Below, piece after piece: positions 1 through 57,950 of a stretch of DNA of 64,000 nucleotides; the first letter of the stretch is position 1; each line of letters opens with the position of its first letter. The notes below the pieces were generated by a model that saw only the letters and a program-made list of their open reading frames with translations, was not told the origin of the DNA and searched no databases. A program made the translations under genes and the position numbers. Origin of the DNA: Taxawa tesnikishii (nom. ined.) (taxonomy: Eukaryota > Ascomycota > Dothideomycetes > Dothideales); assembly GCA_030247885.1 (NCBI GenBank), contig JAPDRO010000028.1:62001-126000 (forward strand), given 5' to 3'.

Positions 1-514
1 GACGCGTCGATTTCGTCATCAACAACGCCGCTCTAGCGGTCAACAAGAAGTTCGAGGAACAGACCATGGCGGACTGGGATCTACTGGTGAACTTGAACGC
101 GCGCGGCACGTTTCTGCTCACGCAGGCCTCCCTGCCGCATCTGACCAAGCCCGGAGGCCGGATCATCAGCATCTGCAGCGCGTCTTCGCGGGCCGCGCCG
201 CCCATGCAAACCATCTACGCCGGTACGAAAGGCATGGTGGACAGTTTCACCCGGGTTTGGGCGAAAGAACTGCCGCCACGGTATGGCTGCACTGTCAATG
301 CCGTGAGTCCGGGCCCTACGCGCACAGAGGGGTTTGCCGCCGCGGGGAGGAGGTCATGAAGATCTTGCAGCCGACTATTGATGCGACCCCGGTGGCGCCA
401 AGGATGGCAGAATCGTCGGAGATTGCCTATGCGGTGGCTTTCTTGTGCGAAGAACGGGCGAGGTGGATCAATGGATTGCATATGCATGCTAACGGTGGAT
501 TGCTCGTGGATTGA
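1..514 (+). CDS. Short-chain dehydrogenase/reductase, 3' part (5' end outside window)
   Basis: This is the C-terminal two thirds of a classical SDR, an NAD(P)H-dependent oxidoreductase; the substrate cannot be told. The frame is already open at the window edge and reads VINNAA (the NNAG-type motif), then a YAGTK active site (YxxxK), then NAVSPGPTRTEGF (the PG motif after the catalytic Lys), and ends MHANGGLLVD, a normal SDR tail. The frame changes once, at a run of four G at 344-347: upstream it reads GFAAAG, downstream GEEVMKILQP. One extra G would join them perfectly. The same kind of single-base deficit recurs through the window, so I take it as a probable sequencing error rather than a pseudogene. 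It converges on another SDR gene at 807-1739. Confidence 0.85.
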   Translation, partial: TRRFRHQQRRSSGQQEVRGTDHGGLGSTGELERARHVSAHAGLPAASDQARRPDHQHLQRVFAGRAAHANHLRRYERHGGQFHPGLGERTAATVWLHCQCRESGPYAHRGVCRRGEEVMKILQPTIDATPVAPRMAESSEIAYAVAFLCEERARWINGLHMHANGGLLVD

Positions 515-806
515 ATGACCCTCCAGACATAGATGATACGAGCGCTTTGTGACAGCGTTCCCAATCGATGAGTTCTCTTACATGAGTGCTGATACTGACC
601 GGGGAGCTTTTCCTTTTTCTCTTTCTTTGATTGCCGTTAGGAAGTGAGAGCTGGTGGATGCGTTTATCCGTCAGACTTGCTGGTCCGTGGAACTCGTTTG
701 AATCGTGTATACGGGTAATCGGATATCTAGATATTCGCACTCAGACTGCAGCTGTTACACGCCTCGAAAGTGTGGTCCTCTGCTCGACATCCTAGGCGTG
801 TGCAGC

Positions 807-1739
807 TCATAAACTAAACCCAGCATCGATCACGGCATTTTGCCCCGTCATAGACTTGCTTAGAGCGTATGTCAGGACCTGCGCAGCAACGTCCTAGTAA
901 TTCATCAATTTGCCGGCTAACTCAGCTCGAAAAGTGCAAATGTGACTTACCTCGACAGTAGCAAATGTTTTTAGTCGGTTCTGCTCTTTGACAGCATCAA
1001 GCCGTTCTTGGGGAACGATAGACCCCAGTCCTGCGCCTCAGGTCAGTCGAGAGCTCAAAGTTCAATGATATTACGACCATCCTACTGTGAGGAGCACGCC
1101 AGGCGAAACAGAGTTGACACGAATCCTAGGCGCAGCAATAACAGCGAGAGATTTCGTCAAGTGGATCAAAGCAGCTTTCGTGACTGCATATGGCTACTTC
1201 CATGTCAGCGCAGTTCCTCATCTTTCCACGACGCAGAAACAGTGATGTACCAGAGAGCTCCCGCTCGGCTTGACGCCAGCCACACTCGCCGTTGAGATGA
1301 AAGCACCCTCTGACTGATCAAGATATGGGCGCGCAGCATGAAAAAGCCACAGATGACTCTTGACGTTGACGTTGAAACACCGATCCCAGTCACCCTCGTC
1401 GACGCCGTCGTCCAGGTCCATGAAAGTGCGCATCTTCGTCCATCCGGCATTGGATATGACAACGTCAAGGCGACCCATCGAGTCAACGGTTTCCTTGACC
1501 AGCCGTCGAATCTCGTCCCTTTGGCTCATGTCAGCCTTGATGGCCGCAAAGTGCTTAACCTTGTCATCTCCAGCGCCTTCTCGCGCTTCCAGGTCCTGAA
1601 TCAATGCTTTGGCGCGTGTCTCATTCGAGCTGTAGTTTATGACTACGCGCATGCGGGCTTCGTGAGCAAGCGTGCGCGCGATGGCGGCTCCGAGGCCTGC
1701 AGAGCCGGCAGTAACCAGAGCGACTTTAGTAGCCATCAT
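807..1739 (-). CDS. Short-chain dehydrogenase/reductase, four exons
   Basis: This is a complete classical SDR of about 254 aa. Exons are 1251-1739, 1086-1193, 951-1030 and 807-893, with introns of 57, 55 and 57 nt, all GT-AG and with CTGAC or similar branch sites. The Rossmann start MATKVALVTAGSAGLG carries the TGxxxGxG-type glycine motif; NAGW follows in the middle, and the active site PYAVTKAAL (YxxxK) lies directly after intron 1. SVSPGVLLT and a C-terminal QNAVIDAGF complete the fold. Exon 3 needs one extra base at the G run 1010-1013 to pass from DWGLSFP to QERLDAVKEQ; with it the coding length is 765 nt. The start is the first of two adjacent ATGs. Substrate unknown. The promoter would lie above 1740. 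Confidence 0.85.
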
Positions 1740-6775: not shown

Positions 6776-9700
6776 TTAACGCCACCTGCCCGCCTCCCTC
6801 TCCTTCTCAACCTGCGCGGCGCGGTCGTCATCCTCGTATTTGTAGCTCATCCTCCGACCCTTCTGACCGTTCATCTCGCTGCGACGACGCCGGCCGTCTT
6901 TGTCCTTGTCAGCCTTCGGTCCCGTAGGTGGAGCGAAGTTCGAGTCCGATTTGGTATCGTCGCCGTCGAAGGAGCCGCGGCCGCGCTTGGTAACGTTACC
7001 ACCGCCCTCACGGCGTTGCTTCTCACGATCCATACGCTCTTTCATGCGGGCTTCGCGTTCGAGCGCATAGGGGTCGACGGCTGGAGTAGCGGATTTGGGT
7101 GGTTCGGAGGGAGTTGGGGCTTTTGAGGGACGTTCATCACGCTGGCGATCCTTCTTAGGGCCGGTTGGAGGTGCGAATGTGGTAGAGTCGGCGGCGGGCG
7201 GCTTGGTTTTGGTTGCTCTAGAACCTTTGATCTTGAAGCCCAGGTCGTCAGCCGGGGCAGTGGGTGCCTCTTTCTCGCGCTCTGACTCGCGGTCCTTACG
7301 ATCGTCTCTCGAGTGACGGCTGCGACGAGAGTCCCGGTGGTCGCGGTCTTTGTCGTGAGCATCGCGCGATGTGGAGCGGTCACGGCGGGAACGCTTGCGG
7401 TCCTTGTCCCTCTCCCTGTCACGATCTTTTTCACGCTCTCTATCTCTGTCGCGCTCTCTGTCACGGTCTTTCTCGCGATGATTCGGAGACCTGGAGCGGT
7501 GACGATGACGGCGACTGCGCTCCTTACTGTAGTCTCTCCTAGACCGCGAAGAGTGGCGCTTCTCATCACGCCGGCGATGGCGCTTAGAGGAATCGTCGTC
7601 CCGGACCGGCGAGCGTGAGCGTGAACGAGACTCACGACGAGAGTCAGCGTGATCTCTTTTGCTGTCGGGGTCAACGACGGGATGGTCGCGGCTTTCACAA
7701 TCTCTAGAAGTGCGGTCTCGGCTTTCGTCGTCGTACTTGCTCTCATGGTGACGACGACGCTCACGCTTGCGCTCTTCTGCCTCACCGTCCTGGTTAGCAC
7801 TCAGGGAGCGGTTGCGATGCTTGCGCTTGCGGCTGTGTGACTGCGACCTGGATCGCGCGTCTTCATAATCAAGGTCGGATGTCTCCTTTGGTGGTGAGCC
7901 GCTTCGTTCACGTTCGACTAGTGCTGCCTCGCCTGGAGTAGGTTGGATCTCAGCTTGTGAGTGAACTTGGGGTTGGAGTTTTGCGCCAAAGCCTGGTCTG
8001 CTGTAGATTCCACTGTTAGGTAGACCTTCTCTCATCGCTTTTGGTCCGGTAGGGGCGTTGATGGGTGGACTCGGGCCCCGATCATTGGCACCGGTTAGAA
8101 CGGTGAAGTCACCAGAAGTCTGTGCCACGTTGGCGCCATATCCGCCACTTTGCATATTGTGACCGAAACCGCCACGGCCACGGAAGCCACCACGGCCGAA
8201 GCCTCCTCTACCTCGAGGGTTGAAAGCATGCGGTTGCTGATTCGCGCTGTAGAAACCACCATCCGGACCCATCGCGTCCATAGCACCAAAAGCCTGCGAC
8301 GCTTGCATGAAACCATTCCCGTTCATGTCCATGCCCATACCGGCGTCCTGGTCTCCCATGTACGGTTGGTCTGTCATGATTTGTGGGTGATCGCCATCCG
8401 CTGGCTGTGGCGTATAATCAACTTCTCCATTCTGGGAGGCTTGAGCAATACCGTTAGTGGGATCGACCGTATCATCTCCTTCACGTGATGGAAGCTGTTC
8501 AGACTGGTCAGGAGCCTCCGTGGGTTGACGAGTCTCATCACCGGCGGCTTGTTCGGTCGCACTTTGATCTAGTGCCGTAGAGGACTCTGCAGGGTTGCCT
8601 TCGACCGACATTCCAGAACGTGATTGCGGCCTCTGCTGAGAAGGCTCAGTGGAAGCCATCTGCGAGCCGCGACGTCCCTGGTGGTCCGCTTGCATCTGCT
8701 GTGAGAACTGTTCATTGCCCATCTGCTGATTACCGTACTGACCCATCTGATTTTGGTTCGGATGAGTCCACTGGCCACCACGACCGCCATAACTGCCGCG
8801 ACCACGGCCACGGCCGTAACCACCACGATTGTGGTACTGATTCTGGGTTGGATGGTGAGAAAATTGCTGCATCTGGGAGCCGTAAGGCCCTTGGTTTGTT
8901 TGATTGGCGTTATATCCAGCATTGGGATAGTAACCGGAATTGCCACCAAATCCCTGTCCGTTCCACCCTCCGCCAAATCCACCAAACCCCATTCCCATAC
9001 CCATGTTACCCATGGCCATAGGATTGTAGCCACCGTACATGCCCGATGGCATCATCGCGTTCATGTTCATGCCGGGCATTCCTGAGAGAAGTCAGAATCT
9101 GTGAAAATTCAGGCACTGGTGGTAGTCACTTACCCATCATGTTCGGATAACCATAACCCATATTCTGCATCATCATTGGGTTAAACCCACCTGCAGCATT
9201 TGTAGCGTTCCAGTCCATTCCAGTAAAGCCTTGTTGAGCGGATGGGGTCGCAGAACCATCGTTGAACATCTGTTGCTGGCCTTGATCACCATGTTGCTCA
9301 GACGAAGTGTTTTGTTGTTGATCAAAAATGTCCCCATCTTGCTGCTGCTGCTGCTGCTCGCCTTCATTGCTATGACTGACAGTGCCATTCTCGAGTGTCT
9401 GCTCTTGCTCCTCCGCGGGTGGACCGGATGCTTTGATTATCTCGGCTGGCTGCTCGCTTTCTTGAGGTTGTCCTGGAAAGTTCTGGGGCGTTGTCAGCCA
9501 TGTCCAGTACGCTCGTTATCACAGCCAGCCAAGCAGCTTCATGGTGATGTGGGCGCGGTGTGACCTGCAAGGAAAGATTCCCAAGACACTGTAGCGTGGA
9601 GCTTACCTGAGGTGTAAAGTCAATCGGGAGAGCATCCCCAGGGATTATCTCAGCGCCCTGGGCGACGCTATCGGCCTGCTCTTGATGGGTTTCTTGCGCT

Positions 9701-13944: not shown

Positions 13945-14495
13945 TTGCAGTGCAACTGTGGTTTTACTCCACACCAAAAATGCAGTGCAAAAGTGCAGCT
14001 CAGCCAATCAATCAGGTCGATTAGGCTCATGGGTGACGTTCTTCCCGCTGTTAGCAAAACACTTTTGACGGCCCCCGAACCAGGCACTCTTTTGACGGCC
14101 CTCAACGCAAACATTATTGCACTGCAAAAACGCCATTTGAGCGAATGAGCTGACGCCCTAAGCTTTGCGCTTGCCCGAACGAAGAAGCATAGGCCTTGCG
14201 CGCCTGGATGGGTAGAAGTTTAGGGCGCTGCATATTCCTACACACTGGAGTCATTGGACAGACCATCCTCGGTTTATTCACACGAGCATTGAGGGAGTAT
14301 GGGAAGCTACGTTCCGCTGGTTCTCTACCATGCATTGAAGCTGTCCGGACCAAAGAGGTGCGATCCGATCGGCAGCGTTGTTGTGTTGTACTGCGGTTTG
14401 TGCGCGAGTACAAGATGTCTCGCAACCTGCATGGATCATTTAACCATCACGACCCGGCACGCAGGGGCTTTCGATAAACTAATATTGCACTGCAA
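13945..14495. repeat. Cluster of the near-palindrome TTGCACTGCAA
   Basis: The 11-mer occurs as TTGCAGTGCAA at 13945-13955, as TGCAGTGCAA at 13981-13990, and in the opposite sense as TTGCACTGCAA at 14117-14127 and 14485-14495; the last two share ATTGCACTGCAAAAAC. Between them CTTTTGACGGCCC is repeated at 14062-14074 and 14089-14101. No gene is recognised in 13727-14731, so these may be protein-binding sites ahead of the Clr5-ankyrin gene or ends of a small decayed element. Confidence 0.5.
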
Positions 14496-19594: not shown

Positions 19595-21174
19595 TTACCC
19601 AGCAGACCCCGACCTTTCCGACTTCTCCGACTTGCCCTCCTGTTCCCTCCTCGCCATCTTCCCCTAGCACCCTGTTTCAGAGTCTCCCAGTGACTCCTGT
19701 ACTTTGTGATAACCTGCTTCTGCCTCAGATTCTCTGCTGCCAGCCTCTGTCTCTCATCTGCCTCCCTCGCCAATTGCTCCTGCAGCGCTCTCACCGTCTC
19801 ATCACTGGCCGGCGAGCCTGTCGGTCCCGCACGTATACTCGCCATACTCTGCGTCAACGCAGCCATAGACGCGTCCTGCGCGTGTGACTCGAAGGCCGCT
19901 AGCCTGTGGCTCATCTGGTCCAGCACTTGCTTCAGCGTTGCGTTTTCGATCTGCAGCTCTTCCTCGCGGACCGAGCTGGGCGCTCGGCCTTGCACGCGGC
20001 TGTGGCGTGGTGAGCGTGGCGCTTGAGTCTCCCGCGCGTCAACGAAATCGTCGAGTCCTTCGCTTGCTTGGTAATGATGTCTCTGGGCATCCTGCTGTGC
20101 TCGGGAGAGGATGTCGGCATAGGATACGGTTCCCCGCTTGTTGGAATGACGTAGAAGCTCTCGCCGGGCCCGAAGGCATTGCCAGAGAATCCTTGGTTGC
20201 GTTGCTGCTCTTCGATAGCATGTAGTGCCGCTTGCGAGAATAGCTTGTTCACGTCCGGGTCGTTGCTTGCCCTTGCGCTGGTCTTTTCAATCTTGGACTG
20301 AGCAAGTGTCTCCTCCTCTGCCGTGAGTGGAAGACCAGCGAAAGCGAGCATGGATGAGAGTTTGGACAGCGGACCCGATGTCAGGTTCGAGTAGAATTTA
20401 GCGAATCCTTCGTCGTTTGCCGCCGACTTCCTCTGCACATCCTGCTGAAACGCGTTTGGCGGGACATGGCTTATGGTACTGATGGGTCTGCTGTGCTCTT
20501 GTTGTGTAGCATGTACAGGCCTTCGAGATTTTGCTTCGGGAGACAGCAGTCGGGGTGTACTAGCCATCCTCCCTCCAGCGCGCTGATCGGAGAGGCTTGG
20601 TCCACCTGTTTGTACCCTTCTCTGTTGCGCCTGTGGTATGCCTCTTCTTGACGCGATATCTTTCGCCAACGCTGGTGATGACTCTCTTGGACACTGGTTG
20701 ATCACTGCCATCGAGGGCTTGTGAGGTTGAGGAGGGCTCTGCACTGTAGCCGAAGGAGGACTCGTAGGCGATACGGCTTCGGACTCTCTAGGGGCTTGCT
20801 CTTCGTTGGAAGCAGGCTTGGCCTCGGATGCTGCTTTGGCGAGTATGTCCTTGGTCTTGATGATCTGTGCGAGCTTGCGGTGATGATCTTCCAGAAGTCT
20901 CAGAATCCTCAAGGCCTTTTCTGCGTCAGTCCAGAACCGCAGTCAGGCTGACGGTGGCATCACGAATACCTCAGCATCAACTGTGTCTCCTGCGGCTTTC
21001 GCAAACTCGCCCGCTGCAGACTCATGTTCGGTCGCAGCCAGGGTCAGGCGCGCCTTCTGGGTTTCCTGGGATGCTCTCCTGGCATAAGAGTGAGCCTAGG
21101 GCAGGGTCAGCGTCGAGCACCGGTAATGAGTTATCCGTATATCTACGTACCAGGGTCAGAGAAGCCTCTTCCAT
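19595..21174 (-). CDS. MIT-domain protein with C-terminal coiled coil (Atg38-like)
   Basis: Exons are 21151-21174, 20970-21095 and 19595-20915. The short first exon MEEASLTL runs into an MIT (microtubule-interacting and trafficking) three-helix domain (AHSYARRASQETQKARLTL, ALRILRLLEDHHRKLAQIIK), followed by a long disordered region, a conserved GPGESFYVIPTSG motif and a coiled coil (ELQIENATLKQVLDQMSHRL, LREQ-type helix, KYRSHWETLKQGAR). The layout resembles fungal Atg38, the PI3-kinase complex I subunit in autophagy; the assignment is from architecture only. Two single-base deficits are needed, in the C runs 20132-20135 (giving GTVSYADILSRAQQ) and 19661-19664 (giving GKMARREQEGK and the stop at 19595). 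With both, the coding length is 1473 nt, 490 aa. Without the second the frame runs on to 19504. Confidence 0.7.
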
Positions 21175-21688: not shown

Positions 21689-24600
21689 ATGTCGACACTG
21701 GAACCTGCCTCGGCGTCCTCATCTCGCAACCCTCTGTCTAAACTGAAGCGGAATCGCAAAGGAAATGAAAACGCCTCCACAAGCTCCCTTGTCAGCAGTT
21801 CTGTTGATGGTGACGGCTCAAGCAATGGATTGAGGTCATCCGTAGATGGCGCTCTGGAGAAGCTGAAACAGCGCGCCCGCAGATCGGTGGACGACAGACG
21901 CACTTCTGCGTCATCCGATGGAAGGCGCAACAGTGCAGGCTCTGAGCGGCGTCTGTCTCAAGTATTATCTGGTGGGAGAAGGCGCCGAAAAGATAGAGAT
22001 GCAAGTGGGAATCGCCCGGCCAGTATGTTCCTGGACGAGCCTTCTCCTGGCGAGTTGCAGCGTTCCGGAAGCGAGTATTCATTGGGCCTCAACGACAGCG
22101 GTCGCAGCAGTCTGCTGACCGAAGACTCGGACAACGAAGGGTGTGTTTTATCTCTGTTGCTTTCCTCTAATCCATCTGATATTCGTGTCCACTGTCGTTG
22201 CACGACGAATACGGTGGAATACGCGCTCGGCTAACGGCTCGAGCCGATTTGCGGAGGGTTGGTGATCAATCCCTGGCATCAGCTCGTTTGAGAGCCCGAT
22301 GTCAACGTCAGCTATCCACGCCGCGACACCGCCCACGCACAACTCCGTCCAAGGACAGCTGCTGGTCGGCTTTCCTCAAACACCTGGCGTTGCGTCGCTT
22401 CCCGTCATCGTTCACGACCCGACCGATTTTTTGCACGCTTGCTATTTGTCTTGGCTAACGATACCCACGCAACTAGACCGCCTGCACGACCCACTCTTTC
22501 CCCTCACGATTCGCATGCTGGGTACCTGACTCTATCCTCACCTCTTATAAAAGCCCAAACAAGCCCTACCGGTAACGCCAGTGAGGGACCCGAGCCTAGT
22601 ACCGCGCAAATCTCTAGTATCGACAGCGTTCAAGGCGACGCCGAAACTACCGCAACAACGGATACCCTGGCAGCCGCAGCCCCTCCTCCATTGGAACGCG
22701 CTCAATCCCCGACAGACAAGTTCAGTAGGGTTTTCACTCTGCCACGCAAGAAAGTAGGAGGCTCTACGGAATCCGTAAATAAGAGCAGCGGTGGAGGTGG
22801 TGGGTTAGGTGGACTGCTTGGTGGAGGAAGCAGGAGGAATAGCCTAACCCAGAAAGAGGCTGAGAGGATTGAGGCCCAGCCTGAGCAGCAGGACGAAACC
22901 AAGACATCAGAAGAGCGTCCCACAACTCCGCAGGCATCCGGCGGTCAACCTCGCATAAATACTACCGTGCTATCTACGCCTCCAAACCTGGTCAGCGCAC
23001 CCACAACGCTGATTACACCACCAACACCTACGGAACCTCGACAGCCACAATCGCCCACTCCAACAAAAGAATCAAATACGGCAAGGAACACTCTCTCAGC
23101 TGTCAACACGTTCCCACGTGCGAACGCGGCCTCTCAGAAGCGCAACAGGTTGTCGAACCTGCCATCCAGCAGACTGTCTAATGCGGTCTCGGCGAACATC
23201 TTGACACCCACAATCGAAGAAGCGAAAACGCCCGGTGGCACTCTGACCTCTCCATCGGGCCCTGGTGGTTTCTTCAATTCGTTCTTTCCGCTGCACAAAA
23301 CGCTGCCAACCAGCTCAGCAACAGCATCAATACCTCCATAGGACCCAACCAAAAGAACAAACAGCCCGAACCAGAGCGCGTAGGAGGAGCTGGCGGAGAA
23401 GAAGTGATTCCTGGCCCTGAAGACCAATCAAACGTCGAGACCACAGGCGAAAAGAGGCAGCCTGCAGTCGAGACCCTTGGAAAGGGAGAGCTCAGTCTTA
23501 GCCATCTGGGTATTACCGACAGCTCCGATACAAGCCCGATGACGTCCAAAGTAGACGTTTCGGAGACCACTACCTCCAATGCAAATTCCGTGGAAGAAGA
23601 TGCTGCAGCGCGTGCAGTGTCGGTAGCATACGAGACGCCCGTCCAACAAGCTGTCGCGCAAGCCCAAGGCGGTCGTCCTCTCTCGGTAGCCTCTGCCGAT
23701 GGCGTATCTGGCGATCAGACACCGCCGCGTGCCATGACTGGCGTCTTTAATGGAGGCGAAGTCAAGCGAAGTGGCAGTGTTCGAAGCAGGATCAGCGAGC
23801 GCAGGAATAGGAGGCATAGGGGCAGCTCTGCGACTACCGGCGGCACGCTCGCGGCGGTCATCAGTGCCAGCACCGCGACCCTCAGTAATCCTGGCGCGAG
23901 TGGTGGCCACCGGTTGCCGGGTTTCGCAGTGGCGAGCAGCAAGCGCAACAAGGATTTCCATCAGCTGTTCAGGAGTGTGCCAGAAGACGACTACTTGATT
24001 GAAGACTACAGCGCCGCTCTTCAGCGGGACATCCTGCTTCAGGGTAGGCTCTATGTCTCCGAAGGTCATATCTGTTTCTCGAGTAACATCATGGGCTGGG
24101 TCACCAACTTGGTCATCAGCTTTGATGAGATTGTCTTGGTCGAAAAGAAGAGCACCGCCGTCATCTTTCCCAATGCCATCGTCATTCAAACACTGCATGC
24201 GCGCAACGTCTTTGCAAGTCTCATGGCACGAGAAGCGACCTATGACCTGATCATCGGTATCTGGAAGACCAGCCATCCGAACCTGAAGAGCTCACTGAAT
24301 GGTGTTGCGCTCGACGATTCCGGCACTGGCGATAAGACCGAAAAGGCGGAAACCATGGGCTCTGACGAAGGGTCCTCGGACGGTTCCGACGATGATGTGT
24401 ACGACGAAGATGCAGATGAAGACGACATGGGCAGCTTCACCGAAGCTGGTGGAAATGGTAGCATTGCGGGCAGCGATATTGCCGACGCGGCCAAACCTGT
24501 CAGTCGCAAGACCTCGGCCCAGCCTGTTGGTATTGGAGAGAAACAGTCGAACGGTACTCCGAGTGGTCTCGCCAACGCTGATGCAGTCGTGACCGGAGCC

Positions 24601-25866
24601 GCAGTAGGCGCCGACTATCCAGGACCGCCTACACACGGTGCTACAGAGTGCGGCGACGAATCCACACATTACGACAAACCTCTCATAGACACCACCATAC
24701 CGGCACCACTTGGCAAGGTGTACTCTATGGTCTGGGGTCCTGGCTCTGGCAGCTTCATGAGCAAGTGGCTCGTCGACGATCAGAAGTCCCGCGAGGTATC
24801 ATACGAAGACAACAAGACTGGGATGGACGACACTCACCGCACATTCACGTACTCGTACATCAAGCCGCTCAACGCGCCTGTGGGGCCGAAACAGACAAAG
24901 TGTATTGTCACCTGCACGCTGGAGCAATTCGATCTCGACAAAGCGGTTTCGGTGAACTGCAGCACGCAGACGCCTGATGTACCGAGCGGAGGCATCTTCA
25001 CGACGAAGACAAAGTACTGTATGATGTGGGGTCCCGACAACACGACGAGGTTTGTAGCCAGTTGCACAATCGAATGGACGGGCAAGAGTTGGCTCAAAGG
25101 TAAGCTTTACCCCGTCACTTCCTCTTCAACCTTCCTCTCCTCTTGCCGTTCTTTCCATCCCTGTCGTCAGTCTCTCATCTAACTTTTTCTGGTATAGGAC
25201 CGATCGAGAAAGGTGCCAACGACGGCCAGACCCAATACGTCAAAGACTTGACCACCGCCCTCCGCTCCGCCGTCACAACCAAGCCACCCGTCAAAGGCGT
25301 CGCCACTGCGCGCGGCGGCAAAGCAGGCAAGGGCAAGCGTAAGAAGGAAACCTTTGACACCGCCGGCACCGAAGCCGCGCGCGCCGCCGAAGCAGAGAAG
25401 CAGAAGCAGCAGGAAGCCAACTGGGGTCTTTTCGAACCCTTGCGCGGAACAGTGCCGGGTCTCGAGACCGCCGTGGGTGTGCTGAGACCGGTGCTGAACT
25501 CGCAGGTCCTGGTCGTCGTGCTCTGTCTGCTGCTGGCATGGACTTGGATCTTCCCTCACGGTGGAGGGGCGGGGGTCGCGGCGCGGTCGGCATGTCGAGA
25601 CCGGAACGCATGGCTGCGTACGAGGAGATTTGGCGGCGTGAGGAGAGCGAGCTGTGGGATTGGCTTGAGGAGAGGACGGGGTGAACGGGCTTGCGGCGCC
25701 GCCGCGGGTCGACAGCAGAAAGGCGGCCGCGATGGGGAGGAAGTTGGGAGATGAGAAGGTCAGTGAGCGGCAGGTGGACGACGCGATCAGAGTCACGGAA
25801 CAGCGGTTGGAGGCTTTGAAGGAGGCCGTGGAGAAGAAGAAGAAGCAGGGGAAGAGGAAGGCTTGA
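21689..25866 (+). CDS. LAM-type sterol transfer protein (GRAM + VASt + TM; Ysp2/Lam-like)
   Basis: Exons 21689-22140, 22477-25099 and 25198-25866 encode about 1248 aa. A long Ser/Thr/Pro-rich disordered N-terminus precedes a GRAM domain near residue 645 (FHQLFRSVPEDDYLIEDYS, HICFSSNIMGW), an acidic linker, a VASt/StART-like domain near 865-1060 (IDTTIPAPLGKVYSMVWGPG, TKYCMMWGPDNTTRF) and one membrane helix near 1124 (VLVVVLCLLLAWTWIF), then a coiled coil. Such LAM proteins sit in the ER at contact sites and move ergosterol to the plasma membrane. Three single-base deficits must be allowed for: T run 23285-23287, G runs 25566-25569 and 25678-25681. With them the length is 3747 nt, divisible by three. 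Intron 1 is long (336 nt). Confidence 0.88.
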
Positions 25867-26186: not shown

Positions 26187-27159
26187 TCAGTAGATGACCG
26201 TGTCCTCGTCCGCTTCGACGATGACGTCGCCAGTGTCGTCGATGCTTTGTTTCCGCTCGCGTCCCGCAGTTCCATCAAGCTCGTCCTTCGCTGTCTCTGC
26301 TGTCGCGCCTTCTTGCGCTGCCTCGCCTGCGGCATCCTCGGCCGTACCATCCGTCCCACCCTCCCTGTCTTGCTCAGCGGGGTTGCCGTTCGTCCCTTTA
26401 TCTTGTTTCCCGTCCCTCTTCGTTTGATCCCCGTCTCCACCCTCCCTTCCTCCCCCTTCCTCCCGCCATCTCCTCATCTTCTCGTCAAACTCCTGCAACT
26501 CACCCTCAACCAGCTCCTCCGCGTCCTCTCGCTGCCTCTTGATCCTCTCCTCCTCGTCCGGCCTCAGATCCCAGGGCCGATAAAACAGTTTGGGCTCCGC
26601 GGCCGTGCTCAGGAAGTTGGCCGTCGCGAGGAGGTTCGCGTGTCGGAGGCGCATGCCGACCTCGTCCACCTCCCTCTGCTCCCTCCGCCTCCGTTCGCGC
26701 GTCGAGCGGAGCCGGGCCTCTTCGCGCTTGCTCAGTTCCTCCTCCTTCCTCTTCGCCTCCTCGCGCTTTCGGTCCTCGATCTCGGCGCGCCGTTTTTGGG
26801 CCACGGAGGTGGGTTTTGCGGGCCTAGGAGGGCGCCGAAGAGGCGCTGGGACCGCTTCTTCTCGTCCACGGGCCGTGTGCTCCGCTCTGTGCGTGAGGGC
26901 TTGCGGGTGCTGTCGGGGTGTGTTGGCGGCTCCGGGGACTCGTTTTGGATTGCGTGTGTTGCGGATGGGGGGCGGTGTCGGGGTCCTGTGGTGCTGACGT
27001 CGCATCTTTTGGCGCGTGTTGGGACGGGGATACGCTGATTCGTGCGCGTTTGGGAGAGCTAGGGGAGAGGGAGGATTGCCGACGTTTGAGGGTCGGTGCG
27101 CTGGGTGAGGGAGGTGCGTCGGGTGGTACGACGGATGAGGCGACGGTGGATTCAGCCAT
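26187..27159 (-). CDS. Pinin/SDK/MemA-domain protein
   Basis: This single-exon gene encodes about 324 aa. After a Ser/Pro-rich N-terminus with a basic patch (SPKRARISV) comes the pinin/SDK conserved block: DEKKRSQRLFGALLG, then a long Arg/Glu/Lys helix (KRRAEIEDRKREEAKRKEEE), RIRHANLLATA-like sequence (MRLRHANLLATANFLS) and LFYRPWDLRPDEEERI. The C-terminus is acidic and repetitive. Pinin-type proteins are nuclear and linked to the exon-junction/ASAP-PSAP splicing machinery. The block is readable only across two frame changes, at the G runs 26934-26937 and 26820-26822, each consistent with one missing base; restoring both gives 975 nt. Confidence 0.75.
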
Positions 27160-28038: not shown

Positions 28039-29265
28039 ATGGCAAACACAATGGCCTCCAACAAGGCTGCTTGGATCAACGAGCCCAAGGGTACGTGGCC
28101 CGTCGAGCACTGGTGCATGCTTGATTTGGGAGCTATGCCGCGGATCTTGGTGGTGTACTGACTCCTGCCAGGTAACCCTCTGAAGGTTGATCACGCCAAC
28201 CTGCCTACTCCTGCTGCAGACGAAGTCGTGGTCAAGAACTCTGCTGTAGCAGTCAACCCCGTCGACTGGAAGATCCAGGACACCGGCTACTTCATCAAGG
28301 ACTACCCCAACATCCTGGGCACTGATGTCGCTGGCGTGGTACGTGGTCTTCTATCCACCCGACGGCTCCGTCGAACATCAGCACATGATTGTTCTGCGCG
28401 CTACTCCAGAAACTGTGACAACGTTCTGACCCCCGCCAGGTATCGGACGTCGGATCTGACGTGAAGCACGTCAAGAAGGGTGATCGCGTCCTCGCCCACT
28501 GCTTCGGTCTGGGCACCGGCAAGCCAACCAACGCTGGTTTCCAGCATTACAGCGCAGTTCCCGCTATTGCCACCGCCAAGATCCCCGACAACATGTCCTT
28601 CAACGACGCAACCGTTCTTCCTCTCGCCATATCTACCGCCGCTGCGGGTCTGTACCAGCCCGGCTACCTCGAACTCCCCTTCCCTACCTCCTCCCCAAGG
28701 ATTCAGGCAAGGTCATCGTCGTCTGGGAGGCTCCAGCTCCGTCGGCAGCACTGCGATCCAGCTTGCCGTTGCTAGTGGTGTGGACGTCATCACGACCGCG
28801 TCGAAGAGGAACCACGACTACGCCGCGAATCTGGGCGCAAAGGGCGTTTTCGACTACAACAGCTCCTCCGTCGTTGACGATGTGGTCAAGGCGGTCAAGG
28901 ATAGCGGAAAGCAGTTTGCGGGCATCTACGACAGCATCTCACTGCCAGAGTCATTCAAGCACGTCTTCGAGATCGCACAGAAGCTAGATGGAAGCAAGAC
29001 TATTGCCACCGTTCTCCCACCTCCAGAGAAGGTCCCAGAAGGTCTGGAACCGAAGGGCGTTTTCGCCATCACGGTCGGCACTCAGCACAAGGACGTCGGA
29101 GAGGCCGTGTGGCAGAAGTTCGTGCCAGGCGCGCTCGAGGACGGAAGTCTGAAGCCATTACCTGAGCCCCTGATCGTCGGCAAGGGCCTCGAGAGTGTCC
29201 AGAAAGGTCTGGACAAGCAGAGGGAGGGCGTTAGCGCAAAGAAGGTCATCATCGAGTTGGAGTAG
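28039..29265 (+). CDS. Medium-chain (zinc-type) alcohol dehydrogenase/quinone-reductase-like
   Basis: Exons 28039-28090, 28172-28338 and 28440-29265 encode about 348 aa. The GroES-like N-domain (VNPVDWKIQDTGYF, NILGTDVAGV, KKGDRVLAH) is followed by a Rossmann domain with WGGSSSVGSTAIQLA. No catalytic zinc Cys/His set is evident, so this is the zinc-less MDR group common as stand-alone reductases or as trans-acting enoyl reductases in fungi; no polyketide synthase is nearby. Between 28693 and 28727 two homopolymer runs (CCCC, GGG) each lack one base: the short middle frame reads KDSGKVIVVW and fits the family exactly. With both bases the length is 1047 nt. Confidence 0.88.
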
Positions 29266-29602: not shown

Positions 29603-31009
29603 ATGCCCAAACGTTCCCCTCTTCCTTATATGGCAGCGCTCGTGTCACCGTTCGCATTGCGGTCTTTTGCAAGGCCGACAGGCTTGAGATGCGCTTCGCG
29701 CGCCATCCGAACTGCTGCGCAGTGGCAGACATGCCAGCGACGCTCACTACTCACTTCGAGCGACAAGCGCAAGCCTCCGGACTTTGCGTTTGCATTCGAG
29801 TAAGGTCACATCCCTAGAACCGTACATGGTACAGGCTGACAGTTTGAAAGTATTGATGGTGTACTCGTCCGTTCCTCCGATGCTCTCCCTCGCGCGCACA
29901 AGGCGCTGTCGTACCTCCAACGCGAAGGCATTCCATTCATCCTCCTCACCAACGGCGGCGGAAAGTATGAGTCGGAAAGGGTTTCGGACTTGTCGAAGAA
30001 ATTGGGAGTGGAATTGGACGTCAGCATGTTCGTGCAGAGTCATACGCCATTTGCGGAGATGAAGGATATGCACGATAAGACGGTACTGGTTGTCGGAGGG
30101 AACTACGACAAGTGCCAGCTCGTTGCACAAGAGTAGGCTTAGCCTCCATCAAGCCCCTACACACGGAAGACAGAGAACTGATCCAGCCATCAGATACGGT
30201 TATAAGAACGTGGTCACGCCGGGCGACATCATCTGCGCGCATCCGGAAGTCTGGCCCTTCGCGGAAGTGTTCAAAGACTACTACGAGTCCTTTGCACGTC
30301 CTTTACCCAAGCCCATCGACGCCAAAGACGCCTCCAAATCCCTCAAGATCGATGCGATTTACGTCTACAACGACCCCGCGACTGGGGTCTCGATACGACA
30401 ATCATCCTCGACCTGCTCCTCTCGCGCCAGGGCATCCTCGGCACGCTCTCGCCCAAGAACAACAACCCGGACCTTCCCAACCGAGGCTACCAGCAGGACG
30501 GCCAGCCGACACTGTGGTTTTCGAACGCGGATTTGTGGTGGGCGGCCAAGTACCACCTGCCTCGGTTGGGTCAAGGAGGGTTCAGAGAGGCGTTCGAGGG
30601 CGTATGGGCCGCTGTTACGGGAGGCCCAAGCATGGGTGTGGAACTGAAGAAGAGGGTCATTGGAAAGCCGTTCTTTGAGACGTATGAGTTTGCGGAGAGG
30701 AGGTTACGTGCACATCGTCAAGATCTGTTCGGCAAGGACGTGGACCCCCTCAGGAAGGTGTATATGGTGGGGACAATCCTGGTGAGAGTCGTGTTCGCTT
30801 CGCGTGTGACATTGGCGCTAACAGCTCTGGCAGAATCGGACATTCGCGGTGGAAATACGTATGAGAGTCCGTATGGCAGCAAATGGTCGTCCATCTTGCT
30901 GAAGACGGGCGTTTATCAGGAGGGTACAGAACCGGCGTGGAAGCCGACGGTGCTTGTGGACGATGTTTACGATGCTATAAACTGGGCTATAGAGGATGCG
31001 AAAAAGTGA
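29603..31009 (+). CDS. HAD-superfamily hydrolase, CECR5/HDHD5 type, mitochondrial
   Basis: Exons are 29603-29799, 29851-30132, 30194-30781 and 30834-31009 (introns 51, 61 and 52 nt), about 414 aa. An Arg/Ser-rich presequence (a second ATG at 29630 is possible) precedes the HAD motif I, FAFDIDGVLVRSS, with Asp66 as nucleophile and split by intron 1. Motif II is FILLTNGGG; late motifs VYMVGDNP-ESDIRGGNTYESPYGS contain the GD(N)PxSD metal-binding element of the type IIA subfamily. CECR5 homologues are mitochondrial phosphatase-like proteins of unclear substrate. Single-base deficits at the C run 30374-30377 (restoring DPRDWGLDTTI) and the G run 30769-30772 (restoring MVGDNP) make the length 1245 nt. 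Confidence 0.87.
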
Positions 31010-37929: not shown

Positions 37930-39210
37930 ATGGACATGCCAGTGAATGTCCCGGTCGATGACCCGAACGCAGACACAGAATGGTAAGTGCTATATCTCAT
38001 ACCTCTTTGAGATCGAACAAGCAACGATCTGTGTGATTTGTAGAACAGTCGATGTGGTTCTCTGCTGTCGAACTTCTCTTGCATCATCCTTGTTGACTCC
38101 AAGACGGATCTTGCACCTGGCATAGCACCATGTACGGCAGTCTCCCTCGCCTGAGACCGAATCGTCAAGCCATGAAGCGTATGCACGTTTCGATGATGCT
38201 GCAAAAGTTTCGGGCCATTCTGTGAAGCGTCAGGGGTTCCGAAACGTGTATGAAGTGGTGTTCAGCGTAGTGTTCTATGGCGGCGTGGCTAAGGTATCCG
38301 GCTTGTGCGGCTCGAGATGCTAACATATAACAGGAACGACATCCTTCGCAAACATGGCATCATCCCAGAAAAGCCGCCTTCACCAACTCCCATGATAGAA
38401 GAAGCCCTGATCGAGGCACGTCGGCTTGCTCATGAGAACCGCCTTGAAGGCAAAGACCTTGACGAGCTCGCGGAGCTTGAGGACGAGGAGGATGAGGACT
38501 TCCTGGAGTCGTATCGGTCAGTATTCCTCAACAGTTACGCACTTCTTTGGTAGGCTGATGGCAAACAGGAAGAAGCGGATGGAAGAACTGTCGACGATCC
38601 AGTCCGCATCGATATACAACCAAGTCTATCCAATCCAAAAGCCGGACTACTCTCGCGATGTGACAGAAGCGTCGAAGACGTCGTGTGTGTTTGTGCTTCT
38701 CACGTCATCGTCGGGAACGAACACCGAGTCCCGGTTGCTGATTGAGATATGGCGCGAACTGGCGACAAAATTTGGCGATGTGAAGTTCTGTCAGATGCAA
38801 GCCAATCTGTGCATCGAAGGCTACCCGGAGCGGAACACCCCAACCATTCTCGTATACAGCAACGGTGACATCAAACGACAGATTGTCACGCTGCGTGAAC
38901 TGAAGGGAGACAGGACGTCCATCCAAGGCAAGTCAACTATCACCTTTCCGTTTAGGCAGTCTAGAGTTCGGCAAGCTTGGGTTCTCGGTGGCTTGGCCCG
39001 TGCTGTGCATATTGGTCGACCGTGCTAACGACGCCTCTCTATGTCAGATCTGGAGGAATTGCTGCGCAGCACCGGCGCCGTTAAACCCAACGACCCCGGC
39101 TGCGCCGCCGGAACGAAGGGAGTGACGCCGCTGCACAGGAATCCGGTATCAGAAAGGGCGGTAAGGGTCCTGGAGTCGGTCAACACGACAGCGATAGCGA
39201 CTGGGATTGA
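37930..39210 (+). CDS. PLP2: Phosducin-like protein (PLP2 type)
   Basis: Exons 37930-37982, 38334-38516, 38569-38927 and 39048-39210 encode about 252 aa. It shows the PhLP2 signature NDILRKHGIIPEKPPSP, an acidic helix (ELEDEEDEDFLESYR), and the thioredoxin-fold domain (CVFVLLTSSSGTNTESRLL, VKFCQMQANLCIEGYPERN, PTILVYSNGDIKRQIV). These proteins act with the CCT chaperonin in actin/tubulin folding and are essential in yeast. The C-terminus is restored to NDPRLRRRN...DSDSDWD, the family's usual acidic end, if one C is added at the run 39094-39097; otherwise the frame runs on to 39340. The third intron (38928-39047) begins GCAAGT and is a GC-AG intron. Intron 1 is long (351 nt). Confidence 0.9.
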
Positions 39211-51502: not shown

Positions 51503-51580
51503 TCTGCGATTGCGATCAGCCGGTGGGTTAGTGTTGTTGCTGTTGTTGTTCGGGTGGTGCAATTGGCGTACGTAGTGGAG

Positions 51581-52238: not shown

Positions 52239-54389
52239 ATGGCTGACCAGGCCGCCGGCCCTGTGCAACCCGATCCGAACAACAGCTTCTTCCTCGCGAC
52301 TTCTCCGGGAACAGAGAACCCCCTGGCGGCCACATCCGGCTTTCCTGCTTTCGATGCTGCTCAACAAAACCGTGGATCGAACGGATCCAATCTTCTATCA
52401 GTTACGGGTCCGGTAGGCGAACCCGGTCTTCCACCGTCACGGCCATCTTCCATTCCATCCTCAGGCGGAGGCTCTTCAAGAGCAAGAACCAGACCTTCCC
52501 GGCGCGGGTTGATGAGCTACGCCAGTCGCGGGAGCTGGACCGATCCATCAAGGCCCCCGTCAGCTGCCAGCAAGACTCATGTCCCGAACCTCACTTCCAG
52601 CGCATTTACCCGTCCGATGAGCGCTCAGAAGCTGCAGGGCCAGAAAGCACAGGCGCAGCGTCCCACCTCGCCGCTTGGACAGGAACTCATCTCGCGAAAG
52701 AGCAATGAGACTGAAAGCCGGAGTCGGAAACATCGGTATAGTGATGCTTCGATCGTAACGCTGGAGCATCAGAACAGGCCCATGGTGGATGCGGATGCGC
52801 CGCCCGTGCCCGTCTCGAGGGGTACTGCTGCTACGCAAGCGGATACGAACGTGGACGGGACGACGTTGCGATCTACGAGGACCGGAGGAAGCAGTGCGCC
52901 GTTGCATCGAGGGGAAAGGCCTTCACACTTGGATCTGAGAGCAGCAAAGAACGGAAGTGCTCCACCTGCAGCAAAGTCACCCAAGTCTGCAAAATCGCTT
53001 AGGGCGTCGTTGGGCTTGTCGAGTAGAAACGGCCGTGACCGTTCGCAGAACAACACGCGGACCAGTGGGCACGAGAAGCTATATTCTGAACCTCCTTCGC
53101 CCAAACCAGACCCGGAGAAGGCACCCAGAGACACGAAGAGGAAGAAGAGCTTGGGGAGGAACTGGGAGTATTATAATGGGAATGCGGTTTTTTCTTTTCT
53201 GGACGGATACTTAACTCACGGCGACGGCCGCTTAATGTTTTTACCGCGCTGCTGGCCGTTTTGCCCGCGGCGCTTTTCTTCGGTTTCTCGTGAGTACGGC
53301 TCTGGTCACACAGGAGAGAGATGAAAGAGAAATCGTGCTGACGTTACAACTTGCAGTGCGCCATGGCTGTGGCATAATGTTTCTCCTGCGATACCCATAC
53401 TTTTTGCTTATGTTTTTTCATCTGTATATCTTCTTTTCTTCATGCCTCCTTTACTGACCCTGGTGTAAGTGCGACTTAGTGTGCATTTTCTGCGCGGTTG
53501 CTGACGCATACATAGATCCTCCCACGTGGACTACACCCACATCCTCCAGCACCTCGGAACGAGGATCCACTTGCGCTCGGCCCACCTACCACAGACTGGG
53601 TGACGGTACGCTCTTTCAAGCCGGAGCCCTCCTCCACGTCCGATTCTGGCGGTCCCGGTCCCGCCACCGCTATGGAAGTTCCCGTCAAGTACTGCAAGTC
53701 GTGCGGCATCTGGAGACCTCCTCGCGCGCATCACTGCCGTATATGTGACTCCTGTATCGAGACCCAAGACCATCACTGTGTATGGCTGACCAACTGCGTC
53801 GGCCGACGAAACTACCGCTACTTCTTCACTTTCGTCGCTTCAGGAACTATTCTGGGCATGTTTCTTCTCGCGGCAAGCCTGGCGCATATCCTGGTGTGGA
53901 GGACTCGTAATCACGCTACCTTCGGTCATGCGATCAATGTCTGGAGGGTTCCGTTCGCCATGGCCATCTACGCCATCCTCATCATCCCGTACCCAGCCTC
54001 GCTCTGGGCGTACCATCTGTTCTTGACCGCCAGGAGAGACTACCAGAGAGTACCTCAACTCTCACAAGTTCTTACCCAAAGACCGCCATAGGCCTTTTAG
54101 TCAGGAGTCTGTACTCAGGAACTGGGCATCTATCCTCTTGAGGCCGCGCACGCCGCAGTACATGCGCTTCAAGGGACGGTATCAGGAAGGCGATCAGAGG
54201 CTGGGCGTGAGAAGGAAGAGCAGATGGCGGCCGGAGCCCGAAAGCCAGGATGAGGAGAAGGGCGCGATGGAGATGAAGGAGATGCCTGGCGGCGAGACTG
54301 GCTTCCAGGGTCCAGCTAGCAGGGGACGAGGCACGATCAACAATACCCCTCGATACGACGGCGTCACAAACGGTGGCGCCAGGGCTTAA
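52239..54389 (+). CDS. ERF2: DHHC palmitoyltransferase, Erf2 type
   Basis: Exons 52239-53289, 53357-53464 and 53516-54389 encode about 678 aa. A long disordered N-terminus precedes the conserved NWEYYNGNAVFF, membrane helices (VFTALLAVLPAALFFGFS; IPILFAYVFFICI), HASFTDPGILPR, the Cys-rich domain KYCKSCGIWRPPRAHHC and active site DHHC in ETQDHHCVWLTNCVGRRNYRYF near residue 472, then two more helices. Erf2 with its partner Shr5/Erf4 palmitoylates Ras on the ER. T runs at 53188-53193 and 53413-53418 each lack one base. Near 54030 the frame changes again, between LFLTAR and GETTREYLNSHKF-like sequence, by two lost bases or one gained. The C-terminus (PKDRHRPFSQES, YMRFKGRYQEGDQRL) is family-like. 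Confidence 0.88.
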
Positions 54390-54775
54390 TTGACCTCGGG
54401 CAAGGTTTGCGTCTTACTGTGCAGATTTTGACGTTTCTTCCTGGAGCAGCGTAATTGGCTGTCGTTGATTTGGGAAAGCGATGGAGTTTTACGTGGGTGG
54501 CACGAGGTGGGCATGTACAGATACAGATACCTGCATGTTTCGAAAGCGTTATATTGGGATCGTCATACTCGCCGTCATCTTCGAGCTGTTTTCTTATATG
54601 CGTCGCATATGATCACAAACGGTCGTGATTGTTGCCCGGTGAAGGTGAGCTGGAATGTGAACGCATTGGTTGATTGGCTTGGATTGGCGCGTGGAATCCA
54701 ACGCTTCCCGCACCATACTTTCACCTGGACACACACACTCTTGAACCAGCAAACATTGCATCTACATCCCTCTCT

Positions 54776-54838
54776 CTCTTGCTCTTGCTCTTGCTCTTGC
54801 TCTTGCTCTTGCTCTTGCTCTTGCTCTTGCTCTTGCTC
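54776..54838. repeat. (CTCTTG)n hexanucleotide microsatellite
   Basis: About ten perfect CTCTTG units between Erf2 and the SET-domain gene, 236 nt upstream of the latter's start codon; probably in its promoter or 5' UTR. Confidence 0.95.
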
Positions 54839-55073
54839 CTCGTCTTTTTGTAACTGGACTCATACGCTGTGTTTCCACTTCCCTCAATTGTCTTCTGAGT
54901 CTGGAGTACGCAATACGCACTTCCCGTGGCGTTTCTGATACTATATATTGAGAGATCTGCCCCACACGTCTCGAACGCGTCGCTCTGGGTCCAGCCTCCT
55001 GCACGCGTGAACCCTCCGGCTTTCGCCCTTCCTCTTCCCCAATTGACAAACGCAAACACCAACAACAACAACC

Positions 55074-57950
55074 ATGGCCAAAGCCAAGGTGACGCGCGCC
55101 TCGTCCGCTTCTTCTTCAGGCTCTTCCTCCTGCATCAACGTCGCTGGTGCAGCGGCGCGCGACTCCTCCCCATCCGCCGCGTCTCAGGCGTCGTCTCATG
55201 CATCCACACCACCGACTTCTTTCGCGGGGAGAGCGTAGATGCCGAGGAGAGAGGCAAGACGCTCTTCGACCGCATCGCTCAGCTGGACGGCCAGGAGGAA
55301 ACCGCGGATCTGGAGCAACCGCCGTCGCGCTCCCGCAGCGCAAAACGCTCAAAGTCGGCTGTCGCGAGCTACAACCTGGCTGCGCTCTCTGACGCGCAAT
55401 GGGGCTCGGCGAAAGCCAGGACGAAAAACACGAGTACGCGTACGTTCTCCGGTGAGACGCTCGTTGATCGTGGGGAGAGCTCTACGTCGACGCCGCAGCG
55501 GGAGCTGCTGCGTGAAGGGGTCAAGGCACTGGATGTGGATTCGGAGACGGATGAGTTGGATGCCGATGCTCCGGAAGCTTCGGAGGGACCGTCTGCGAAG
55601 AAGGTCAGGAGCCGACGCAACAGCGCTCACTTGCTGGCCAAGGCTGCTGTCGGTGCCGTGAGCAAGGTTAAGAGCGTACTGGGCAAGCGTGGCAGAGAGG
55701 CCATGGATGCGGGCAAGGAGGCGCTGGGGATCAAAAGTAAACGGCAGAGCTCACGATTGGCGGTGCTGGAGCAAGACAAGGCCGGTTCGGCTGAAGTGGA
55801 GGAAGAGGACGAACGGGAGCAACCCAGCAAGAAGTCACGAGCGCTAGTGTCGAACCTGCAAGACATGGGCCTTGTTGCACCGAATAAGACGAGCGGCAAG
55901 GGCAAGCGTGGTAAACACTTTCTCGAACAGGGCCTCTATGTCGGCCAGCAGGAGAGCCTGACGGAATCGAAGAAAAGAGTAAGGAATGCGGTGCTCCCTC
56001 GCGCCCGCAATCGTGTGGTTCCAATGCCACGACGGTCCAGCGTACCGCCCTTCCACTCCCTATGTTCCAGCACGCTTTTGAGAAGATGAACGACAAGAAC
56101 TTCGCCCTCCCCTTCGATGTCTTCGCTCCCTGCCCGCGGACAGAGAAGCCCAAAGACTGGATCAAGAAGAACAAGAACGTCTTCATCGGCGACGCAAAGA
56201 GCGAGTGGAGGATCATGAAGCTCGAAGCCTCCGTCTGCACATGCAAACCTCCACCGCCGGGATCCAAGGAGCTGGGATGTGGAGAAAACTGCATCAACCG
56301 CAGCATGGAGTACGAATGCGACGACAGCAACTGCAAGCTTGGCGCGGAACTGTGCAGCAATCGCGCGTTTGCGGAGCTCGCTGCGAGGTACAAGCCCCTG
56401 AAGAGGGATGCGGGAAGGGAAGACGACAGGAAGAAGGTCAATGCTTACAATGTCGGTGTTGACGTGTTCAAGACGGGAGATCGTGGATTCGGCGTCAGGT
56501 CTAACAGGACGTTCAAGCCTGGTCAGATTATTGTCGAGTATAGCGGTGAGGTCATCAACCAGGAGGAATGCGATAGAAGGATGAACAACGAGTACAAGGG
56601 CAAGGACGTGAGTAACTCATCCCAAGCCAGCACGGTGGTGCGTACATTTGCTGCGGAGCAGCAACAGCTAAACGATATTTGACCACAGGACTACTACCTC
56701 ATGACCTTCGAGCAACGCCTCATCATCGACGCCACCAAAGGCTCCATCGCCCGCTTCGTCAACCACTCCTGCGAGCCCAACTGCACGATGGAGAAACGCA
56801 CCGTGGCCGGCGTTCCCCGCATGGCTCTCTTCGCCGGCCCCAACGGCATCATGACGGGCGAGGAGCTCACGTACGATTACAACTTCGACCCCTTCTCGGA
56901 CAAGAACGTGCAGGTGTGTCGGTGCGGCGCGCCCACGTGTCGCGGCTACCTGGGCCCGAGGATGAACGAGGCGGAGAAGCGGCAGATGCTGAGGGAGTTG
57001 GAGAGGAAGGAGAAGGAAGAGAGAGAAGCAAAGGAGAGGCGGGAGCGGGAGAAGGAGAGTCTGAGCGCGACGCTGAAGAGGAAACTGCTCGGCGTCGGCG
57101 GCGAGAGCGGCGACACCAAGGAAGAGAAGAAGGTCCTGAAGAAACGCAAGGTGCCGTCCCTGCCGCGCGGATGGGCGTACGTCGACCCCAAGGTCGAGGC
57201 CCAGAGGCTGCAGGAGGAGGCCATCGTCAAGGGCAAGGCGCTCAATACCCTCCAAGCGTTGGTCACGAGCAAACTCGAAACCACCACCGTCCGGAGCGAT
57301 AGGGAGGAGAGACGCCTGCGTCGCGTTTCCAGCGCCACGGTCACGGCGGTCGAGAAAGGTGGTCGCAAGAGCATCGTCCGCAAGACGGAGACTAGGATCG
57401 AGCGCAGCGTCTCCCTATACCAAAGACAACGAGTCGGAAGGCGGGGACACCGAAGCCCAAGAAGGTCGAAGCAAGCGAAGCCGACAACGACAACGACAAC
57501 GGAGACTCCGACGCCGACGCCGACGCGAACGAGGAGCAGCACAAGCAAGAAACCGCCCTCTCGAAACGGGCCAAGGGGAACCCACAAACAACCTCCAGCC
57601 TGCTCTCCCGCGCCGCCACAAACCTCTCGCGCACCGCGTCCGTGCTCTCCCGTCACAGGACCGAAAAGGACAACGACGACGTCGACGACGACGACGGCGG
57701 TGTCGTCGTCAGGGAGAGGAAGGTCCTGAGGCAGACCACGCTCAGCTTCTCCAAGTTCCAGCCGCCGGAGAAGGCGGGCGAGGAGGTCGCGCCCCTGTTG
57801 CCCGCGCGCGGGGAGAGGGAGAGGGAGAGGGAGGGTAAGCTGAAGCGCGCGGGGAGCGTGAGGGGCGTGATGGGTGCGCTGGGGCTGGGGAAGGGCGGCG
57901 GGGAGGGGAGGGAGAGGGAGAAGGAGAAGAGGAAGAGCACGGTTTGGTAA
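55074..57950 (+). CDS. AWS-SET-postSET histone methyltransferase (Ash1-type, probable H3K36)
   Basis: Exons 55074-55978, 56041-56607 and 56689-57950 encode about 911 aa. The N-terminal third is Ser/Lys-rich. An AWS domain (CTCKPPPP, CGENCINRSMEYEC, ELCSNRAF) begins near residue 367. The SET domain has DRGFGVRSNR, IVEYSGEVI, the SAM/catalytic motif NHSCEPNC (about 516) and ELTYDYNFDPF. The post-SET motif CRCGAPTCRGYLG (about 567) supplies the zinc Cys. A long Lys/Glu/Arg-rich tail follows, with FSKFQPPEK near the end. AWS plus SET plus post-SET fits Set2 or Ash1; absence of a visible WW/SRI tail favours Ash1. G run 55226-55229 (restoring FAGESVDAEE) and C run 57413-57415 (restoring SVSPIPKTTSRK) each lack one base; then 2736 nt. 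Confidence 0.85.

What the first reader, a model, noticed from the sequence alone, without database searches (positions are those of the whole stretch)
344..57415. Window-wide one-base deficits in homopolymer runs inside conserved genes
Seen: family-matching protein continues only if one base is added at 344-347, 1010-1013, 19661-19664, 20132-20135, 23285-23287, 25566-25569, 25678-25681, 26820-26822, 26934-26937, 28693-28696, 28725-28727, 30374-30377, 30769-30772, 39094-39097, 53188-53193, 53413-53418, 55226-55229 and 57413-57415. All lie in runs of 3-6 identical bases, nearly all C/G, on both strands, and all have the sign of a deletion. Adding them makes nearly all affected coding lengths divisible by three. 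Some of these genes (PLP2, Erf2, CECR5, LAM) are widely conserved. Inference: undercalled homopolymers in the assembly, so apparent pseudogenes and odd C-termini in this genome are suspect.
Basis: partly seen in the sequence, partly recalled or inferred. Interest (0 to 1): 0.75.

Follow-up and report, generated by a model that had tools for sequence, protein, structure and literature searches.

The report
Undercalled homopolymers in a fungal assembly
Many genes in this fungal genome look broken most likely only because the assembly is one base short in runs of identical letters, a well-known fault of long-read sequencing and not biology.

Summary
The window lies in a 29.4 Mb, 34-contig fungal assembly. 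All 18 runs are as stated. At each, the reading frame steps as if one base were missing; at 17 both flanks look like protein, while 19661 is only a tail. The fault is not confined to the window. In kinase, HSP70 and TCP1 genes elsewhere, five frame breaks leave no room for an intron; all five have the deletion sign and a called run of four at the switch. Mitochondrial nad5 is broken at one place in C26/C28 and at another in C25, each intact where the other breaks. Two assembled copies of one mitochondrial stretch show 14 single-base indels, 12 in runs of five or more. A frameshift caller equally sensitive to both signs gave six deletions and one insertion, the latter equal to two neighbouring deletions. 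None of the 18 sites has an in-frame slippery heptamer. This is residual homopolymer undercalling, a published error class. Reads were not available. In passing: two different mitochondrial genomes are present.

The parts
344..347 (+). called GGGG; frame step (deletion sign) in a short-chain dehydrogenase
   Evidence: Pfam adh_short/adh_short_C2 in frame 3 up to about 341, adh_short_C2 in frame 2 from about 377
1010..1013 (-). called run of four; frame step in a second short-chain dehydrogenase, just after an intron
   Evidence: three-frame translation; Pfam adh_short in the gene
19661..19664 (-). called run of four; weakest site, only a C-terminal tail changes frame
   Evidence: no Pfam match
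20132..20135 (-). called run of four; long open frames on both sides join in the next frame
   Evidence: no Pfam match
23285..23287 (+). called TTT; frame step in the N-terminal part of a LAM-like (GRAM + VASt) gene
   Evidence: GRAM and VASt downstream; frames
25566..25569 (+). called GGGG; frame step after a hydrophobic segment of the same LAM-like gene
   Evidence: ab initio deletion call at 25537
25678..25681 (+). called GGGG; second frame step in the C-terminal part of the LAM-like gene
   Evidence: the ab initio model explained this one as an intron
26820..26822 (-). called run of three; frame step entering the Pinin/SDK/memA domain
   Evidence: ab initio deletion call at 26821
26934..26937 (-). 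called run of four; frame step upstream in the same Pinin gene
28693..28696 (+). called CCCC; first of two frame steps between ADH_N and ADH_zinc_N
   Evidence: frames; one search gives one insertion at 28711, equal to two deletions
28725..28727 (+). called GGG; second of two frame steps in the same gene
   Evidence: Pfam Hydrolase_6 and Hydrolase_like; ab initio deletion call at 30379
30769..30772 (+). called GGGG; second frame step in the same gene, just before an intron
39094..39097 (+). called CCCC; frame step near the C-terminus of a phosducin-like (PLP2) gene, name by recognition only
   Evidence: no Pfam match
53188..53193 (+). called TTTTTT; frame step in the N-terminal part of an Erf2-like DHHC palmitoyltransferase
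   Evidence: DHHC domain downstream
53413..53418 (+). called TTTTTT; second frame step in the same gene
55226..55229 (+). called GGGG; frame step near the start of an AWS-SET gene
   Evidence: AWS and SET downstream; one gene model 55210-57947
57413..57415 (+). called CCC; frame step in the C-terminal part of the SET gene
   Evidence: ab initio deletion call at 57421

Best explanation
The assembly was made from long, error-prone reads (nanopore most likely, PacBio CLR possible) without enough accurate-read correction. The consensus drops one base in a minority of homopolymer runs, above all G/C runs of about five. Each loss inside an exon shifts the frame and makes an intact gene look broken. 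Shown here: the sign, the run context, the spread over the genome and organelles, and run-length disagreement between duplicate copies. Inferred: the sequencing platform and the lack of polishing.
For: 18 of 18 window sites have the deletion sign. Family scan: 5 of 5 breaks without intron room have the deletion sign, and each has a called run of four (GGGG twice, AAAA twice, CCCC once) at the frame switch. nad5 is broken at one place in C26 and C28 and at another in C25, each intact where the other breaks. C26 against C28: 12 of 14 single-base indels lie in runs of five or more. Inverted arms of C25: 9 of 10 in runs of four or more. In 189 kb of nuclear DNA, G/C runs of 4, 5 and 6 number 642, 118 and 5, against 734, 153 and 30 for A/T. 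Caller sensitivity is alike for both signs. Literature: C and G runs are sequenced worse than A and T and run length is underestimated beyond about five in nanopore reads (PMC8486125, passages); such errors are often left by polishing and inflate pseudogene counts (PMC8011154, passages).
Against: The break density differs: 18 sites for about 33 kb of coding stretches in the window, but 5 over about 91 kb of matched domains in the family scan. Different detection depth probably explains this, but it was not shown. Two of those five are AAAA, so the G/C bias is less marked there; in the window 0 of 96 called A/T runs of four in coding stretches is a site. C26 and C28 also differ by 61 substitutions and 3 longer gaps, and two of their single-base indels lie outside runs, so they are not merely noisy copies of one sequence. 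G/C runs over three bases are scarce in normal genomes too (PMC8486125), so the run census alone proves nothing. 5S rRNA copies show no such loss: 44 of the 47 listed are 120 nt, the others 119, 122 and 99; but none of the 30 copies read has a run of five, so this test is blind.
Confidence: 0.96

Rival explanations
1. The breaks are real and the ribosome or polymerase slips on the runs (programmed -1 frameshifting or transcriptional slippage used in many genes).
For: All breaks have one sign, which is what -1 slippage would compensate.
Against: 0 of 18 window sites has an in-frame X_XXY_YYZ heptamer (the sites outside were not tested). Runs at the sites are only 3-6 long. The same kind of break hits mitochondrial nad5 at different places in two organelle genomes, and copies of organelle DNA differ in run length.
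Confidence: 0.01
2. The genes are true pseudogenes, or the lineage is under relaxed selection.
For: Frames are really broken in the sequence as given.
Against: They include genes that are essential and single-copy in other fungi (recalled): a TCP1/CCT subunit, an HSP70, kinases and nad5. Genuine decay should also give insertions; the caller gave no convincing one in 186 kb.
Confidence: 0.01
3. The reader mistook introns and weak ends for frameshifts, so the count is mostly an annotation mistake.
For: At 1010 and 30769 introns lie next to the site; 19661 is only a tail; 25678 can be modelled as an intron.
Against: In the family scan intron-like offsets start at 46, with one HSP70 pair at 38, while the five breaks have offsets from -7 to 17. 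Pfam frames at 344 leave no room for an intron, and the caller, which allows introns, still called frameshifts at 25537, 26821, 28711, 30379 and 57421.
Confidence: 0.02

Closest known systems
Residual homopolymer indels in nanopore-only assemblies (PMC8486125 and PMC8011154; passages seen)
   Same: Loss of one base in runs, worse for C and G, frame breaks and excess pseudogenes; the abstract of PMC8011154 includes fungi.
   Different: Nothing found here that differs in kind. PMC8486125 measured reads rather than assemblies. The platform of this assembly is not known.
Long-read-only eukaryotic assemblies such as Nannochloropsis oceanica BR2/KB1 (PMC6883114, whole text)
   Same: Small compact genome from nanopore reads with Racon and medaka only.
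   Different: A different organism, read before I saw that this genome is fungal; it says nothing about this assembly.

Membership tests
long-read homopolymer undercall | one-base losses, not gains | tested here: met
   18 of 18 in the window by eye; 5 of 5 in the family scan; caller alike for both signs
long-read homopolymer undercall | located in homopolymer runs, G/C worse | tested here: met
   15 of 18 in G/C runs; family scan 3 of 5 G/C and 2 of 5 A
long-read homopolymer undercall | spread over the assembly, organelles included | tested here: met
long-read homopolymer undercall | copies of the same DNA disagree in run length | tested here: met
   12 of 14 single-base indels in runs of five or more, 9 of 10 in runs of four or more; substitutions are also present
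long-read homopolymer undercall | accurate reads show longer runs | not testable with these tools
   no reads and no second assembly available
programmed -1 ribosomal frameshifting | in-frame slippery heptamer X_XXY_YYZ | tested here: not met
   0 of 18 window sites
programmed -1 ribosomal frameshifting | stimulatory RNA structure downstream | not tested
   not pursued once the heptamer was absent
pseudogenes | mixed lesions: gains as well as losses | tested here: not met
   no convincing insertion call in 186 kb; larger deletions and in-frame stops were not counted

The most novel reading that the evidence does not exclude
Some of the breaks are real in the DNA and are tolerated by widespread slippage on short runs in this fungus.
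Probability: 0.01. Interest if true: 0.8.

Novelty: not a real feature. Interest (0 to 1): 0.12.

Why it matters
Gene models, pseudogene counts, gene-loss claims and C-termini from this assembly cannot be trusted where a frame break falls on a run. The rate lies between 1 break per about 18 kb of conserved domain (a lower bound) and 1 per about 2 kb of coding stretch in the window. By extrapolation, which is inference, several hundred to several thousand genes may be affected.

Tried and rejected
First guess of organism: organelle tRNA clusters made me think of an alga (Nannochloropsis), and I searched for and read PMC6883114. Rejected when the organelle genes proved to be mitochondrial and fungal-type, reading further with code 4, with nad5 nearest in the PDB to 7zm7, which I recall as Chaetomium thermophilum complex I. 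The species remains unknown. Two literature searches by assembly size gave one unrelated yeast paper and nothing; one search on frameshifts in nanopore assemblies gave the listing from which I took PMC8011154.

rRNA test: two rRNA family searches failed for technical reasons, and a 5.8S query found nothing, which by the tool's own words shows nothing. 5S copies have no run of five, so they cannot test the claim. An earlier count said that 45 of 47 5S copies are 120 nt; the correct number is 44.

Coding model: codon bias is weak, so the ab initio caller covers only about 36 of 186 kb as coding. Its call at 49952 looks false, because the open frame runs on to its own stop.

The SET gene against the PDB gave only the SET region and no help at 57413. 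Cpa1 against the PDB did not help to name the species.

Rows given to the count: 23 of 24 TCP1 rows (a distant C31 hit left out), 17 of 20 HSP70 rows (three distant hits left out), 141 of 141 kinase rows, 10 of 10 DHHC rows, of which one lies in the window itself. The 9 Sugar_tr rows, in which no two pieces adjoin, were not entered. In one search a pair counted as a break only if its offset was under 35 with a frame change; one HSP70 pair on C1 with offset 38 and the deletion sign was therefore not counted.

In one search four of the six comparisons were run in the wrong orientation and mean nothing. Three were redone; the fourth (19-22k against 77-80k) was not. The region at C25 6-10k enters both the arms and the same-strand comparison, so these are not independent. 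In the census, two loci (L006, L007) overlap by about 3 kb and are counted twice there.

Full report
Setting. The window is C21:62001-126000 of a 29,367,862-base assembly in 34 contigs. Contig C26, and C28 which is 99.4% identical to it over 15 kb, carries mitochondrial genes that read further with code 4 than with code 1. nad5 was searched and is nearest, among solved structures, to 7zm7 (recalled as Chaetomium thermophilum complex I); the other gene names (nad4, nad6, cox1) are recalled. Short GT-AG introns and dispersed 5S genes fit a filamentous ascomycete (inference). The species is not known to me.

Observation. Reading each locus in three frames shows at every site a switch to the frame expected if one base were missing. 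Seventeen join sequence that looks like protein on both sides; at 19661 only a short C-terminal tail changes. Pfam gives direct support for two genes. In the short-chain dehydrogenase at the start of the window the match ends in frame 3 at about 341 and resumes in frame 2 at about 377, at profile positions 183 and 194. In the zinc alcohol dehydrogenase the two domains lie in frames that two losses connect. For LAM-like, Pinin, HAD hydrolase (CECR5-like), DHHC (Erf2-like) and SET genes domain matches place the gene, and the join itself rests on motifs that I recognise from memory. PLP2 and the gene at 19661/20132 have no Pfam match.

More than chance. I wrote a frame-aware coding model with introns, one-base losses and one-base gains at equal cost, trained on the genome's own sequence. 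Over 186 kb (window plus 39 loci), of which it takes about 36 kb as coding, it called six losses and one gain. The gain at 28711 stands for the two neighbouring losses 28693 and 28725; one loss (49952) is probably false. It did not reach 12 of the 18 sites. Planted changes in 11 gene stretches were found for 110 of 132 losses (one of them with the wrong sign) and 106 of 132 gains; unmodified, the stretches with their flanks gave three loss calls and no gain. So the one-sided sign is not made by the method.

Outside the window. Pfam families searched over the whole genome give exon-by-exon matches. Pairs of neighbouring pieces were compared by DNA gap and profile gap (rows left out are listed in Tried and rejected). 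Intron-like offsets start at 46, with one HSP70 pair at 38. Five pairs have an offset below 35 with a frame change: three kinases (C14, C4, C7), one HSP70 (C3) and one TCP1 subunit (C1). All five have the loss sign. Reading the DNA shows a called run of four at the switch in each. A Wss1-like gene in L015 (C3; name recalled) has a loss called by the model and a second seen by eye.

Organelles. nad5 is broken in both C26 and C28 at one place, where a T run meets a G run, and in C25 at another place, in a G run; each is intact where the other is broken. C26 and C28 hold the same stretch twice. Over 15,390 aligned columns they show 14 single-base indels, 12 of them in A/T runs of five or more, but also 61 substitutions and 3 longer gaps. 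C25 is a head-to-head palindrome. Its arms show 10 single-base indels over three comparisons, 9 in runs of four or more, with 19 substitutions; a same-strand copy shows 8, of which 7 lie in runs of four or more. Run lengths in this assembly are therefore unreliable, in organelles at least, whether or not the DNA codes for protein.

Run census. In the window plus 40 nuclear loci (189 kb; two loci overlap by about 3 kb), G/C runs of 4, 5 and 6 number 642, 118 and 5, and A/T runs 734, 153 and 30. G/C runs over three are naturally scarce (PMC8486125), so this is only consistent. Inside about 33 kb of coding stretches there are 130 called G/C runs of four and 18 of five; 11 of the 130 are sites of this finding, and 0 of 96 A/T runs of four. 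If the called fives are right, about 11 of 29 true fives were cut (inference).

Mechanism and literature. Passages of PMC8486125, on reads, state that run length is underestimated beyond about five, that C and G runs fare worse, and that high-GC DNA is worse. Passages of PMC8011154 state that polishing often leaves indels in homopolymers that shift reading frames, and that a Racon-Medaka pipeline gave excess pseudogenes in bacteria. That is this pattern. The alternative of programmed slippage lacks slippery heptamers at all 18 window sites and does not explain run-length disagreement between copies.

Verdict. Confirmed observation, ordinary cause. What is not shown is what the reads say and which platform was used.

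Noticed in passing
G000 contigs C25 (80,121 bases) and C26/C28 (loci L010-L014, L027-L031, L038-L043): The assembly holds two different fungal-type mitochondrial genomes, 79-91% identical at the DNA level in the shared blocks over 500 bp, while about nine TCP1-family genes are seen, the number I recall for one nuclear genome. A contaminant, a mixed culture or a hybrid is possible.
   Followed up: partly
C25, mirror points near 14,105 and 49,574 (from the tRNA positions): C25 is a palindromic contig: a unit of about 35.5 kb repeated head to head, as fold-back reads or missed adapters would give.
   Followed up: partly
C26 against C28 around L039:2576-2643 and 7964-8602: The two mitochondrial copies also differ by clustered substitutions (61 in all over 15.4 kb), which run-length errors do not explain.
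   Followed up: no
C26:9397-9469 and C28:9372-9443: A mitochondrial tRNA is one base shorter in C28, outside any run, and scores 5 bits lower.
   Followed up: no
C2, several places between 91,522 and 1,091,903: Kinase-like matches with the same profile range recur in both orientations, three of them with the same stops inside: a repeat family or a misassembly.
   Followed up: no
window 54745-54850: A short simple repeat that reads as alternating Leu-Ala or Cys-Ser upstream of the SET gene.
   Followed up: no
   Followed up: no
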